Shown piece by piece: positions 25,161 through 28,520 of a stretch of DNA of 64,000 bases. Made by a program: the position numbers and the translations under genes. Each line of letters opens with the position of its first letter. The first letter of the stretch is position 1. This DNA comes from Acinetobacter sp. XS-4 (GTDB taxonomy: Bacteria; Pseudomonadota; Gammaproteobacteria; Pseudomonadales; Moraxellaceae). The DNA lies in assembly GCF_023920705.1 (NCBI RefSeq), contig NZ_CP094657.1, positions 434,001-498,000 of the forward strand. Reading direction: 5' to 3'. The notes under the pieces are model-generated. The model did not search any database, was not told the origin of the DNA, and was given only the letters and a program-made list of their open reading frames with translations.

Positions 25161-25349
25161 TTGTATTTCTTCCTTGGTTCAGGTGTGATGTTATTTCCTT
25201 AAACATACGGAAGCATTTCAGGGCTAACAATGTGATGAATGCTCAATTATGAGGACAAGATGATAAATTTGGTCAATTTGATATTTTTAGCGATCTTTGG
25301 AATGTGATCAGGTAAACTAAGCCCACTATCAACGCAGATGGGGAAATAA

Positions 25350-25607
25350 ATGTCTGACGAAATGACCTTGGAAGAACGTAAAGTAGTTTATCGAGCACGC
25401 CGCGGCTTGAAAGAAATTGACGTCTATTTTGACCCTTATGTAAAAAACTATTATCTACAAGCGGATCCGGCAGAGAAGGCTTTATTTGCAGAATTAGTGG
25501 AACAAGAAGATCCAGATTTACTAGATTGGTTCATGGAAGTTTCTGAACCTCCACGCACAGAGTTACGTGAATTTATTTATAAATTAAAACAGTATGTGCA
25601 TGGCTAA
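25350..25607 (+). CDS. sdhE: FAD assembly factor SdhE
   Basis: 85-residue helical protein that promotes covalent flavin attachment to succinate dehydrogenase. The RGxxE motif needed for this is at residues 18-22 (RGLKE). GGGG-like ribosome binding sequence precedes ATG 25350. The YgfX-like membrane protein follows 6 nt later, the same pairing as in enterobacteria. Confidence 0.93.
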   Translation: MSDEMTLEERKVVYRARRGLKEIDVYFDPYVKNYYLQADPAEKALFAELVEQEDPDLLDWFMEVSEPPRTELREFIYKLKQYVHG

Positions 25608-25613
25608 ACTGTT

Positions 25614-26003
25614 TTGATAAAAGAATTGAATTTTGAGCTGAAATATAGTCGCTTCTCGATAATATTTCAGCTTTTTATTGGCTTGAGTTTAGCAATCCTA
25701 CTTTATCAATTGTTATCGCCAATCTGGTGGTTGGTAGCGCTCATCCTTTTCTCTATTAGTTTTCTAATATTTTTAAAACAATCACGAATTTCTCAAATTG
25801 CATATTTAGATCAAAATTTTTGGTCAGTAGCTTACTCTTCGCAAAAGATTATTTCTCGTTTAGAAATTACTAAAATAATTGATTATCAGATATTTATGGT
25901 TATTTATTTTGAGGGAGCACCCATGAAAGTAGCCATAATTTGGTTTGATCAACTTTCTTTGCAGCATTGGAAAAAGTTAAAAATCTTACAGAAACTTCAT
26001 TAA
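25614..26003 (+). CDS. YgfX/CptA-like membrane protein
   Basis: 129-residue protein with two hydrophobic helices (about residues 17-33 and 37-55) followed by a soluble C-terminal part. This layout, the small size and the place right after sdhE match the YgfX (CptA) family, described in E. coli as inhibiting cell division through MreB/FtsZ and as partner of the SdhE gene. Similarity is by context and topology rather than by conserved residues I can name. The start is doubtful: no ATG is available and the reading frame opens with TTG at 25614 or 25626, neither with a strong ribosome binding site. Confidence 0.62.
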   Translation: MIKELNFELKYSRFSIIFQLFIGLSLAILLYQLLSPIWWLVALILFSISFLIFLKQSRISQIAYLDQNFWSVAYSSQKIISRLEITKIIDYQIFMVIYFEGAPMKVAIIWFDQLSLQHWKKLKILQKLH

Positions 26004-26006
26004 TTG

Positions 26007-26097
26007 TTAGACAATTCTACATTTGTATATTTATTAAAAATAAATAAGAAACAATAATTTAGTCTTTATTTTTTTGCTCGAGTTCAAGATTGTCTAA
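26007..26097. repeat. Inverted 9-mers TTAGACAAT / ATTGTCTAA
   Basis: TTAGACAAT at 26007-26015 and its complement ATTGTCTAA at 26089-26097, 73 nt apart. A related palindrome follows at 26129-26141. Together they suggest a multi-site operator upstream of the small membrane protein genes. Confidence 0.45.
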
Positions 26098-26128
26098 TTA
26101 AAATATAGAAAAAAGCTAAGGAAATACA

Positions 26129-26141
26129 ATTGTCTGACAAT
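26129..26141. promoter_or_regulatory. Palindrome ATTGTC-T-GACAAT
   Basis: Perfect 6-bp arms with one central base, 71 nt before the first small membrane protein gene. Its half-site ATTGTC is shared with the 9-mers at 26007 and 26089. Confidence 0.5.
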
Positions 26142-26211
26142 TTCACCTATGGGTATCAATTTGATCGGTTAAAGTACAAACACCAACGTAAAGTGTGTCG
26201 GAGGTCTCAAA

Positions 26212-26367
26212 ATGGAGATGCCAACATGGTCGTTCTTGGTCATTGCCGTAATTTTGGCAGTGGTGATAGGAAGAGCAGGAACTTTACTCAGGGAACATCT
26301 TAACAGAGTTAATTTTAACAAAGTTAAGAGACAGAGGATGCAAGGTCGTCGATCAGTCAATTATTAA
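26212..26367 (+). CDS. Small membrane protein A (51 residues), tandem paralogue
   Basis: Short gene not recognised as any named family. GGAGG at 26201-26205 lies 6 nt before ATG 26212. The product starts MEMPTWSFLVIAVILAVV and contains one transmembrane helix (about residues 7-19), then IGRAGTLLREHL and a strongly basic tail (KVKRQRMQGRRSVNY). The helix and GRAGTLL are repeated in the gene 71 nt downstream, which shares the GGAGGTCTC ribosome-binding stretch. The paralogy and strong ribosome binding site argue for a real gene. A single-pass inner-membrane protein with the basic tail in the cytoplasm is inferred. Confidence 0.75.
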   Translation: MEMPTWSFLVIAVILAVVIGRAGTLLREHLNRVNFNKVKRQRMQGRRSVNY

Positions 26368-26438
26368 ATTGTTTAGTCGATTAATTCCATCAAGTGTCTA
26401 GTTTATGACTGGGTGCGATTGTAGTAAGGAGGTCTCTC

Positions 26439-26540
26439 ATGGAGATTTCAATGTGGATGTTTCTGTTAATTGCAGTGGTTATGGCTGTGGTAGTAGGAAG
26501 AGCAGGAACTTTACTTAAGGATTATATAGAACAAAAATAA
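26439..26540 (+). CDS. Small membrane protein B (33 residues), tandem paralogue
   Basis: 33-residue product starting MEISMWMFLLIAVVMAVV, followed by VGRAGTLLKDYIEQK. GGAGG at 26428-26432 precedes ATG 26439 by 6 nt. It is a shorter paralogue of the gene at 26212: 20 bases over GRAGTLL are identical, whereas other codons differ at third positions, which points to selection on protein sequence. It lacks the basic tail of its neighbour. A good terminator follows at 26572. No known family could be assigned. Confidence 0.75.
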   Translation: MEISMWMFLLIAVVMAVVVGRAGTLLKDYIEQK

Positions 26541-26571
26541 TATAAGCCGTTAAAAGCTTATCTCAGTTAAT

Positions 26572-26611
26572 AAGTAGCATGTGCTGAACCGTCGCAATGC
26601 TACTTTTTTTT
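26572..26611 (+). terminator. Terminator after the small membrane protein genes
   Basis: Stem AAGTAGCAT with ATGCTACTT, 16-nt loop, followed by eight T. It ends the small-protein unit 32 nt after its second stop codon. Confidence 0.88.
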
Positions 26612-26688
26612 GCCTAAAATTTCTGTTTCCCTGAAAAACTGTCAATTTTATCTGTTGTGAAGTGTGTCAAAGTATAAGCGCTACAATT

Positions 26689-26702
26689 AGAGTAATTACT
26701 CT
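26689..26702. promoter_or_regulatory. 14-bp perfect palindrome upstream of the TatT-like gene
   Basis: AGAGTAATTACTCT is its own complement. It sits 71 nt before the lipoprotein start, in the likely promoter region, and may be an operator for a dimeric repressor. Confidence 0.45.
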
Positions 26703-26772
26703 TTTATTCAAGATATGCATCTGCTAATGTACATCTGAAAAGGAAAAAACAAATTACATAGAGGACAGGAAG

Positions 26773-27861
26773 ATGTCTAAAGTCCAAAAAATAAGCCAAG
26801 GTTTGGCGATGAGTTTTCTTGCAGCTTCAGTTTTATCAGGTTGTTCATACGTCGTGAAAACCGGAGCAAATGTTGCTTTAGGTTTTACGGAAAAGCACGT
26901 CGTTCCGCCTATTCTGGCAATGCAAGATGCTGAAATGGTTTGTAATACTGGTAGTGCTTTAACACCAGCAATCATGTCTACTAAAGGTATGGGTGCAGAT
27001 CCAACGCGTGTTGCGGTATTAATGTATGCAGCGTCAGGCGTATGTGCGGAAAACCAAGCTTTAGAACAGGAATTACGTTATTTGCGCGCATCAAAAGCAG
27101 GACAGGTAACTGAAGCTCAAGATGCACGTATTGCTCAAAAGCGTTGGGCAGCAATTGCTGCTGAGCGTCAATATACAGGCTATAAATTGTTCGCTGATCG
27201 TTGGGAATCTAAATATAAATACCATTTAGGTGATTCTTGTCCAACGATGCGTAGTGATACTGATCAAACAGTTTATTTACTTGGAATGATTAGTGGTCTT
27301 CAGGCTGTGACCAATGATATTAACTCTGGTGGCGCAGTCAATGTTCCAAAAGATATCGCTGCTATTGTAGAGCGTGGCATGGTCTGTCTAGATAATGAAA
27401 AATTCTGGGGTGCACCTAACGCAACGCGTGCTGTTATCTGGACTTTATTGCCAGGGGCAGATGAAGGAAAACCTGATCCATACCAAACTTTAAAACAGTC
27501 AGTGCAAATTGGTGAGCAAAAAGGTGTTCGTTTATCTCATGCATTATATGCGGTAGCTGCTCAAGCAAGTGGTGATGATGCAAAAATCCGTGATGCATTA
27601 AGATCCTATGCGACATCTCAAGCTGATGATAAGCCAGTTAACCCAAACTTTAAGTTAATCGATAGTATGGCTGGTCTGATTGTACGCGGCATTTCTGACC
27701 GTTACTGGACTGAGCATACAGGTGTGCGTACCGGAGATGATGGTATGTCACATTTCTGGGATGATAAGAATGAAGGTGCAGCAGAGCTAGATGAGTTATT
27801 TGATGGCGGAGCCGCATCTGAAGCTCCTGCGGATTCATCTGCTCCACCAGCAGCACAGTAA
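26773..27861 (+). CDS. TatT-like lipoprotein (TRAP-associated)
   Basis: 362 residues with a lipoprotein signal: basic N-terminus, hydrophobic stretch and lipobox LSGC with the acylated cysteine at residue 24. The rest is helical, with several Ala-rich repeats as expected of the TPR-like TatT family, lipoproteins that associate with TRAP transporters (first seen in Treponema). It precedes a rhombosortase gene and a fused TRAP permease. Cysteines at about 58, 77, 156 and 202 could form periplasmic disulphides. The C-terminus is a low-complexity Ala/Pro/Ser tail. The TatT assignment depends on fold impression and context. Confidence 0.72.
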   Translation: MSKVQKISQGLAMSFLAASVLSGCSYVVKTGANVALGFTEKHVVPPILAMQDAEMVCNTGSALTPAIMSTKGMGADPTRVAVLMYAASGVCAENQALEQELRYLRASKAGQVTEAQDARIAQKRWAAIAAERQYTGYKLFADRWESKYKYHLGDSCPTMRSDTDQTVYLLGMISGLQAVTNDINSGGAVNVPKDIAAIVERGMVCLDNEKFWGAPNATRAVIWTLLPGADEGKPDPYQTLKQSVQIGEQKGVRLSHALYAVAAQASGDDAKIRDALRSYATSQADDKPVNPNFKLIDSMAGLIVRGISDRYWTEHTGVRTGDDGMSHFWDDKNEGAAELDELFDGGAASEAPADSSAPPAAQ

Positions 27862-27944: not shown

Positions 27945-28520
27945 ATGAAGGATCATGTACTGAATCATAAAGTGCTTTTGGTCGCAGTGTGCATTTCTGT
28001 TTCTGCTTGTCTACAGGTGTTTCCTGATACTTTTATTTATTGGCGCGAAAGCTTACTCGGTGAATTCTGGCGTTTATGGACCGCACATTGGGTGCACGTT
28101 GGATGGATTCATTTCCTTTTAAACATGATGGCATTCGCCTGTTTACCGTTTATCTTTCCGCATACAAAAGCATGGCATCTTTTAAGTCTGCTTTTTCTTT
28201 TGCCACCGTTCATTAGTTTGGTCTTCTATTTTTATCTACCTTATATCGAGGCATATGCTGGTTTGTCAGGTGTTTTACATGGGCTATATACAGCAGTTGC
28301 TTTAGTTTATTTGCAATATCGTAAAGAACGGAATTTTGCTTTTCTAGTTTTAGGACTAATTATTGCAAAATTGATATGGGAAAATACTTTTGGGCAAACA
28401 GGAACGGCTCAGTTAATAGGAAGTCCAGTTTTAACTGAAGCTCACTTATATGGAGCAATTGGCGGCGCAATCTTTGGAGGATGCTATTGGCTTGCTCAAA
28501 GATTAAAAAAGAAAAATTGA
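27945..28520 (+). CDS. rrtA: Rhombosortase (rhomboid-family intramembrane protease)
   Basis: 191-residue inner-membrane serine protease with about six helices. The catalytic serine is Ser108 in GLSGVLHG and the histidine is His167 in EAHLYGAIGG, the shortened rhomboid form called rhombosortase. These enzymes cut proteins carrying a C-terminal GlyGly-CTERM anchor, often type II secretion substrates. No protein in this window ends with such an anchor, so its substrates lie elsewhere. AAGGAG lies upstream of ATG 27945. Inserted between a TatT-like gene and a TRAP permease, which is not an obvious functional partner. Confidence 0.85.
   Translation: MKDHVLNHKVLLVAVCISVSACLQVFPDTFIYWRESLLGEFWRLWTAHWVHVGWIHFLLNMMAFACLPFIFPHTKAWHLLSLLFLLPPFISLVFYFYLPYIEAYAGLSGVLHGLYTAVALVYLQYRKERNFAFLVLGLIIAKLIWENTFGQTGTAQLIGSPVLTEAHLYGAIGGAIFGGCYWLAQRLKKKN

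What the first reader, a model, noticed from the sequence alone, without database searches (positions are those of the whole stretch)
26212..26540. Two tandem paralogous small membrane proteins of an unrecognised family
Genes of 51 and 33 codons share the start ME-x-x-x-W, a single transmembrane helix and the motif GRAGTLL, plus an identical GGAGGTCTC before the start. Third-position codon differences with conserved residues indicate selection on the protein. Strong ribosome binding sites and an excellent terminator mark a real transcription unit. Both are short enough to be missed by gene finders. Known small membrane proteins I can recall (CydX, PspB, PspD, KdpF) do not match. The basic tail of the longer one suggests binding of a partner, possibly with the shorter one as co-subunit.
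Basis: partly seen in the sequence, partly recalled or inferred. Interest (0 to 1): 0.72.

Follow-up and report, generated by a model that had tools for sequence, protein, structure and literature searches.

The report
Acyl-CoA-controlled tiny membrane proteins of Acinetobacter
Two tiny one-helix membrane proteins belong to an unnamed Acinetobacter family whose genes sit behind DNA switches of the type read by proteins that sense long-chain fatty acids, which ties the family to membrane-lipid or hydrocarbon metabolism.

Summary
ORF A (26212-26367, 51 aa) and ORF B (26439-26540, 33 aa) are related single-helix protein genes. The family was found in 117 of 149 Acinetobacter genomes searched. No convincing member was found outside the genus, and no named family matches.

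The new result is the wiring. All 64 locus-1 copies from the named-genome scan have a palindrome 73-88 bp upstream of the start. Here it is ATTGTCTGACAAT, which on the other strand is exactly the footprinted site of Pseudomonas aeruginosa AlkR, a GntR repressor released by C16/C18-acyl-CoA (PMC12042122, passages). The same operator precedes the Acinetobacter AlkR homologue. A second array of paralogues in other species carries DesT-type sites, shared with the desaturase/DesT genes. Two acyl-CoA sensors thus appear to control this family.

The terminator hairpin after ORF B is nearly invariant in 60 of 64 loci, hinting at a 3'-UTR RNA role.

Best explanation: lipid-induced single-span accessory proteins of membrane lipid or hydrocarbon metabolism. 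Regulation is well supported by sequence; partner and molecular action are inferred.

The parts
26002..26016 (.). Distal AlkR-type operator (AATTGTTAGACAATT, one mismatch), 126 bp above the proximal one
   Evidence: the same 126-bp spacing in all 32 tandem-type loci.
26090..26100 (.). Degenerate middle site (half-site TTGTCT), 40 bp above the proximal operator
   Evidence: a recognisable palindrome lies at the same 40-bp offset in several single-copy species such as L193, L194, L212, L213. Weak in this window.
26128..26142 (.). Proximal AlkR-type operator, perfect palindrome AATTGTCTGACAATT
   Evidence: a TTGTnnnACAA site 73-88 bp upstream of the first start in 64 of 64 locus-1 loci; its 13-bp core read on the other strand equals the footprinted AlkR site of PMC12042122.
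26200..26208 (+). Ribosome binding site region of ORF A (GGAGGTCTC)
26212..26367 (+). ORF A, 51-aa single-span membrane protein with a variable basic tail
26428..26436 (+). Ribosome binding site region of ORF B (GGAGGTCTC)
26439..26540 (+). ORF B, 33-aa single-span membrane protein, paralogue of A
   Evidence: annotated as an uncharacterised protein in one contig.
26572..26611 (+). Near-invariant terminator hairpin (AAGTAGCAT..loop..ATGCTACTT then T run); candidate 3'-UTR RNA element
   Evidence: Present in 60 of 64 locus-1 loci; columns; fold z -3.2; one of 14 pairs with compensatory change; one copy in the own genome.

Best explanation
A and B are members of an Acinetobacter family of single-span inner-membrane microproteins, core FLVIAxxLAIVVGRxGTxL. 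Their synthesis is switched by a GntR/VanR regulator homologous to P. aeruginosa AlkR, binding one strong and one or two weaker palindromes above the promoter. When long-chain acyl-CoA rises (fatty acid or alkane use, lipid turnover), the regulator changes its binding and the mRNA is made. The peptides insert in the inner membrane, probably N-out/C-in, and the helix with its invariant Arg and glycines packs against a membrane enzyme of acyl-chain metabolism (most likely a diiron desaturase or alkane hydroxylase, or its electron-transfer partner) or against one another, to stabilise or tune it. In other species a paralogous array does the same under DesT. Shown by sequence: the family, the operators, the regulator homologues, the conserved hairpin. 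Inferred: that these regulators bind these sites, the sign of regulation, the topology, the partner and the action.
For: Operator in 64 of 64 locus-1 loci at 73-88 bp, kept with the ORF in L203, L206 and L219 where the upstream genes are rearranged. Only 4 places in the own genome within one mismatch of the 15-mer: two here, one before the AlkR homologue, one before an apolipoprotein-like gene; reversed control 0. In 19 Acinetobacter genomes 38 exact 13-mer sites against 1 for the reversed control: 12 above the microprotein genes (11 genomes), 14 above the AlkR homologue at 88-111 bp (14 genomes), 3 above apolipoprotein-like genes, 9 elsewhere. One of those 9 is 235 bp above a rubredoxin gene (PF00301, E 6e-25). 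Regulator against the AlkR structure 9ISW: E 1e-38. AlkR site and release by C16/C18-CoA: PMC12042122, passages. All 117 genomes with the family at E 0.1 have the regulator at E 1e-60; the 10 of 149 without it at that threshold lack the family (naive P 6e-8, species not independent). Second locus: two DesT-type palindromes at -101/-103 and -66/-68 in 7 of 7 loci examined, shuffle expectation 0.00-0.01; the same motif lies between a DesT homologue (3LSJ, E 3e-29) and an oxidoreductase followed by a fatty acid desaturase (PF00487, E 4e-31) in the own genome.
Against: No binding, expression or phenotype data. AlkR and DesT specificity in Acinetobacter is inferred from homology plus the motif. In the P. 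aeruginosa paper the AlkR site covers the -10 regions; here it seems to lie upstream of the core promoter, so activation or looping is possible. 22 of 139 genomes with the regulator lack the family. Of the 9 other exact AlkR-type sites, one lies inside a gene (L134), one at the end of a gene (L131), and others precede genes without an evident lipid link, such as a sulfate-permease-family transporter and a predicted metal-dependent hydrolase after tuf. Outside Acinetobacter the exact motif was found 3 times in 10 genomes against 1 for the control, so it is not free of chance. Topology is weakly supported: residues after the helix carry +8 in A, +1 in B and -1 in a short second-locus member. No partner gene is adjacent.
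Confidence: 0.45

Rival explanations
1. Membrane-conditioning peptides: the microproteins have no dedicated enzyme partner; induced when acyl-CoA or saturated chains accumulate, they change bilayer packing or protect the membrane.
For: Very short, mostly helix, several near-identical copies in tandem at locus 2 (L067: three short copies plus one long), which suits a dose effect; control by lipid sensors fits.
Against: Five invariant residues in 40 members, including an Arg close to the end of the hydrophobic stretch, and a GRxGT motif suggest specific packing rather than a bulk effect.
Confidence: 0.25
2. Type I toxin-like peptides: small hydrophobic proteins kept silent by an antisense RNA and released under stress.
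For: Size, single helix, tandem duplication; tandem type I examples such as Ldr or Ibs are recalled, not looked up.
Against: No Rfam match in 25200-27000 at E 1; two different conserved metabolic operators, strong Shine-Dalgarno sequences, chromosomal synteny across the genus; matches in the plasmid and phage collections are six records, of which the one with a gene table shows chromosomal order, and no viral contig was confirmed. Start-region folds only modestly beyond shuffles (mean z -1.6, -1.3 and -0.6 for A, B and single-copy). The padloc library was not searched.
Confidence: 0.08
3. The RNA is the main product: the transcript mainly delivers a 3'-UTR small RNA through the invariant hairpin, and the ORFs are secondary.
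For: Hairpin nearly invariant in 60 of 64 loci across the genus, including columns outside the 10-nt core used to select the rows, with one compensatory pair.
Against: The ORFs persist with start and helix and pN/pS below 0.5; in L195, L203, L206 and L219 ORF and operator remain without the hairpin; the second locus L226 has the proteins without it. No recurrent 10-nt complementary target in 6 genomes.
Confidence: 0.12
4. One reading: A and B form an obligate two-subunit complex, A's basic tail binding a partner.
For: Tandem genes with the same ribosome binding site.
Against: 32 of 64 locus-1 loci have one gene; tail unconstrained, apparently frameshifted variants and A/B hybrids exist.
Confidence: 0.05

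Closest known systems
AlkR-AlkB2 regulator-enzyme couple of Pseudomonas aeruginosa (PMC12042122)
   Same: Homologous GntR/VanR regulator and the same palindrome ATTGTCnGACAAT.
   Different: The target here is a microprotein operon with two or three spaced sites, not alkB2; the paper (section 10) says Acinetobacter alkB is predominantly coupled to an AraC-type regulator. The regulator gene here lies beside an SMC-type gene; whether that holds in P. aeruginosa is recalled, not checked.
DesT-desCB regulon (P. aeruginosa)
   Same: Second-locus arrays carry the palindrome found between the Acinetobacter DesT homologue and the oxidoreductase-desaturase genes; PMC10634369 (passages) describes DesT control by saturated and unsaturated acyl-CoA.
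   Different: No microprotein in the passages seen; the second locus was not found in this genome.
Bacterial single-span accessory microproteins (CydX, AcrZ, KdpF, MgtS; recalled)
   Same: Size, one helix, probable partner in the membrane.
   Different: No such model is among the 12 Pfam families that any of 40 members matched at E 0.5.
PF11446 DUF2897 and PF14147 Spore_YhaL
   Same: Weak matches of 4 of 40 members each, best E 0.011 and 0.0082.
   Different: Not significant for short hydrophobic sequences; not tested further.

Membership tests
AlkR (GntR/VanR) regulon | ATTGTC-type palindrome at the promoter | tested here: met
   TTGTnnnACAA at 73-88 bp in 64 of 64 locus-1 loci; exact core in the window.
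AlkR (GntR/VanR) regulon | An AlkR homologue in the genome | tested here: met
   G000, and 139 of 149 Acinetobacter genomes at E 1e-60; 9ISW match E 1e-38.
AlkR (GntR/VanR) regulon | Binding and release by long-chain acyl-CoA | not testable with these tools
   Needs EMSA.
DesT regulon (second locus only) | DesT-type palindromes at the promoter, shared with the desaturase/DesT genes | tested here: met
   7 of 7 second-locus arrays examined; shared sites (6 of the neighbour loci opened); desaturase confirmed in the own genome. The array is not in this window or genome.
Known small membrane protein families (Pfam, NCBIfam) | Match above the curated cut-off | tested here: not met
   A and B: no family at E 1; 40 members: best E 0.0082, Pfam.
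Type I toxin-antitoxin | Antisense RNA gene overlapping the toxin mRNA | tested here: inconclusive
   No Rfam match; promoter-like sites on both strands at chance level, 6 found against 6.3 expected; no RNA-seq available.
Type I toxin-antitoxin | Growth arrest when expressed without antitoxin | not testable with these tools
   Needs an expression test in a laboratory strain.
3'-UTR-derived small RNA | Conserved terminator hairpin with conserved loop and a separate short transcript with targets | tested here: inconclusive
   Hairpin conserved in 60 of 64; no target found; no transcript data.

The most novel reading that the evidence does not exclude
One genus has evolved a family of microproteins that form a lipid-responsive membrane module: two separate acyl-CoA sensors (AlkR-type and DesT-type) each drive their own paralogous set, the peptides act as exchangeable subunits of membrane diiron desaturases or hydroxylases, and the AlkR-controlled mRNA also releases a deeply conserved 3' small RNA, so one transcript acts through both peptide and RNA.
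Probability: 0.15. Interest if true: 0.8.

Novelty: new variant of a known kind. Interest (0 to 1): 0.62.

Why it matters
Most small membrane proteins have no assigned pathway. Here the regulatory DNA alone ties an unnamed family to long-chain acyl-CoA sensing, through two unrelated repressor types, and gives direct tests. It also suggests that in Acinetobacter the most conserved target of the AlkR homologue, besides itself, is not an alkane hydroxylase but a microprotein operon, which bears on lipid adaptation and hydrocarbon use in this genus, including A. baumannii.

Tried and rejected
Pfam, NCBIfam and PHROGs scans gave only weak, scattered hits. The PDB profile search gave none. An AlphaFold2 model of A from the family alignment is one long helix, residues 5-47, mean pLDDT 77, pTM 0.37; no fold search was made, since a lone helix would match anything. 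The named-genome scan used one peptide pattern: 112 stretches matched, 65 were confirmed, so its absences mean little. Order-level search: 11 of 244 genomes at E 0.01, one of them the own genome; of the other ten best hits nine lie inside open frames of 303 aa or more and one is a 17-position match, so I read them as noise. Viral contigs: 9 stretches matched the pattern, none confirmed. The plasmid and phage collections gave only Acinetobacter records: four 'plasmid' records of 0.5-4.1 Mb and two 240-kb contigs filed as phage; one of each was opened, the plasmid one without listed genes, the phage one with the ordinary chromosomal gene order. RNA targets: a 10-nt complement of the hairpin loop was sought in 6 genomes; in the own genome the only match is the hairpin itself, totals do not exceed the reversed control, and no gene recurs among the other matches. 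Start-codon hairpins are not clearly better than shuffles. A resemblance to the TatA helix was considered from memory and not tested beyond the absence of a TatA model. Literature: the listings of searches showed nothing on this family; passages of PMC11472050 and PMC12802169 (A. baumannii RNA interactomes) did not mention it for the terms tried; supplements were not opened and the library is partial. The hairpin rows were chosen for a 10-nt core (60 of 64), so those ten columns are invariant by selection.

Full report
CHECK OF THE OBSERVATION. ORF A (26212-26367, 51 aa, MEMPTWSFLVIAVILAVVIGRAGTLLREHLNRVNFNKVKRQRMQGRRSVNY) and ORF B (26439-26540, 33 aa, MEISMWMFLLIAVVMAVVVGRAGTLLKDYIEQK) are present as described, each behind GGAGGTCTC. 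Over 32 aligned codons 18 residues agree and 7 of those 18 differ synonymously. Upstream lie sdhE (PF03937, E 1e-19) and a ygfX-like gene (PF07254, E 0.0065, below its cut-off); downstream a 362-aa protein without a convincing family, a rhombosortase (TIGR03902, E 2e-45) and a DctM-type TRAP permease.

A FAMILY, NOT A CHANCE PAIR. The 51-aa protein has 27 relatives in the large protein set, of 33-79 aa, without Pfam domains; the few that a source names are called hypothetical protein, four of them from A. baumannii. A single-sequence search finds a match in 124 of 149 Acinetobacter genomes at E 1; the 40-member alignment finds one in 117 of 149 at E 0.1. In the named-genome scan 65 loci were confirmed of 112 pattern matches: 64 titled Acinetobacter and one a Moraxellaceae MAG. 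The order-level search of 244 genomes, with at least nine of other genera of the same family, gave no convincing outside member. Alignment A1 has invariant A12, A16, G20, R21 and T24, with F8 and G23 in at least 90%.

SELECTION. Pooled pN/pS: A core 0.11 and B 0.09 in 9 sequences of the A. calcoaceticus-baumannii complex; B 0.04 and A core 0.43 in 10 haemolyticus-type sequences; 0.49 in 12 single-copy members; A tail about 2.0 in 7 sequences (few changes). The helix is what is selected, more strictly in B than in A.

SYNTENY AND COPY NUMBER. Of the 64 locus-1 loci, 32 hold the A-B pair and 32 one gene. In one search, 60 of the 64 have the acyl-CoA dehydrogenase, sdhE and ygfX genes upstream in the window's order (L166 starts at a contig end; L203, L206 and L219 are rearranged), 63 have the 362-aa gene and all 64 the rhombosortase downstream. 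In L203, L206 and L219 operator and ORF stay together although the upstream genes are inverted. The unit therefore looks self-contained.

THE OPERATORS. Upstream of A is a perfect palindrome AATTGTCTGACAATT (26128-26142), a one-mismatch copy 126 bp above and a degenerate copy between. In the own genome the 15-mer occurs within one mismatch at four places only, against none for the reversed control: the two here, one before an apolipoprotein-like protein (PF01442 E 5e-9, below its cut-off) beside a carbamoyl-phosphate synthase small-chain gene, and one before a GntR-FCD regulator beside an SMC-type gene. In 64 of 64 locus-1 loci a TTGTnnnACAA palindrome lies 73-88 bp above the first start, and in all 32 tandem loci a second lies exactly 126 bp higher. 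Exact 13-mer sites: 38 in 19 Acinetobacter genomes against 1 for the reversed control; in 10 other genomes of the order 3 against 1. I placed all 38: 12 above the microprotein genes (11 genomes), 14 above the GntR gene at 88-111 bp (14 genomes), 3 above apolipoprotein-like genes, 9 elsewhere. The 9 include an AraC-type regulator, a sulfate-permease-family transporter, a rubredoxin gene 235 bp downstream of its site, a metal-dependent hydrolase after tuf in two species, a beta-lactamase-fold hydrolase neighbourhood in two species, one site inside a gene (L134) and one at a gene's end (L131). So the motif is strongly concentrated on the microproteins and the regulator, with a looser rest.

WHICH REGULATOR. 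The GntR protein matches PDB 9ISW at E 1e-38, the N-terminal DNA-binding part especially. 9ISW is AlkR of P. aeruginosa; its footprint is ATTGTCAGACAAT, which is the reverse complement of the window's ATTGTCTGACAAT, and C16- and C18-CoA release it (PMC12042122: abstract, passages and one section seen). The paper gives the motif as ATTGTCXXACAAT and says that Acinetobacter alkB is predominantly coupled to an AraC regulator. Neither 'small protein' nor 'hypothetical protein' occurs in its main text. In 149 genomes the regulator is found in 139 at E 1e-60; the 10 without it at that threshold also lack the microprotein family, while 22 with it lack the family. The naive probability is 6e-8, but species are not independent and both counts depend on thresholds.

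THE SECOND LOCUS. In haemolyticus-type species a separate array of two to four paralogues (for example MSVLLFPVVAFGLAVVVGRIGTVMFQEQDKQS plus a longer member) lies elsewhere in the genome. It lacks the AlkR-type operator in the six loci looked at but has two other palindromes, at -101/-103 and -66/-68, in 7 of 7 loci examined, with up to two mismatches (shuffle expectation 0.00-0.01); the motif was defined on these arrays, so the sharing below is the independent part. The motif recurs at two other places in each of 6 such genomes and at one in the own genome, against one control match in all 7. I opened six of those neighbour loci. In the own genome the site lies between a TetR gene whose product matches P. 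aeruginosa DesT (3LSJ, E 3e-29) and an oxidoreductase gene followed by a fatty acid desaturase (PF00487, E 4e-31); L158 and L159 look the same by eye, and L152, L154 and L155 show a gene without a Pfam match in the one tested. PMC11448061 (passages) says A. baumannii has desB genes in an operon with a desT homologue and an oxidoreductase; PMC10634369 (passages) says DesT responds to saturated and unsaturated acyl-CoA. Both control inputs of the family therefore appear to be acyl-CoA sensors. This convergence is the main reason for assigning the family to acyl-chain metabolism.

THE 3' HAIRPIN. The terminator after B (26572-26611) is nearly invariant in 60 of 64 loci; four lack it (L195, L203, L206, L219). 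It folds with z -3.2, has one pair with compensatory change among 14 (13 distinct sequences), and its loop core occurs at one place in the own genome, the reversed control also at one. No Rfam family matches. Such conservation of a terminator loop suggests a 3'-UTR small RNA, but no target was found.

HOW IT PROBABLY WORKS. Shown from sequence: family, selection on the helix, operators, homologous regulators, hairpin. Inferred: acyl-CoA relieves or alters AlkR binding; the proteins sit N-out/C-in (residues after the helix carry +8 in A and +1 in B, but -1 in a short second-locus member, so this is weak); the invariant Arg and glycines pack against a membrane enzyme. AlkB and the fatty acid desaturases belong to one superfamily (statement in PMC12042122), so a shared type of partner for both paralogue sets is an economical guess, no more. 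The sign of AlkR control is open: the proximal site seems to lie above the core promoter (my reading of the conserved blocks), whereas the P. aeruginosa site covers the -10 regions.

VERDICT. A real, unnamed family with unusually informative regulatory DNA; regulation is well supported by sequence, mechanism is a testable guess.

Noticed in passing
Elsewhere in the same genome, G000:C1:864740 (locus L103): AlkR-type operator (one mismatch) about 75 bp upstream of a 195-aa apolipoprotein/LEA-like amphipathic protein beside a carbamoyl-phosphate synthase small-chain gene; homologues with operators in L126, L139 and L141. Possibly a lipid-associated protein.
   Followed up: partly
26572-26611: The terminator hairpin is nearly invariant across the genus, with a near-invariant loop; candidate 3'-UTR small RNA without an Rfam match.
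   Followed up: partly
27945-28520: Rhombosortase gene (TIGR03902), found downstream in all 64 named locus-1 loci; its substrates were not sought.
   Followed up: no
25614-26003: ygfX-like gene after sdhE starts with TTG and matches the Cpta_toxin model only weakly (E 0.0065); its identity falls below 40% in many species while sdhE stays at 67% or more.
   Followed up: no
L128, L142: Exact AlkR-type site in two species between a beta-lactamase-fold hydrolase gene (PF00144 in L128) and a gene read by eye as RecD-like; which gene it controls is unclear.
   Followed up: no
CAKLQH020000003.1 and CAKLQF020000004.1 (phage collection): Two 240-kb contigs filed as Acinetobacter phage match the family; the one opened carries ordinary chromosomal genes there, so the label looks wrong.
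   Followed up: partly
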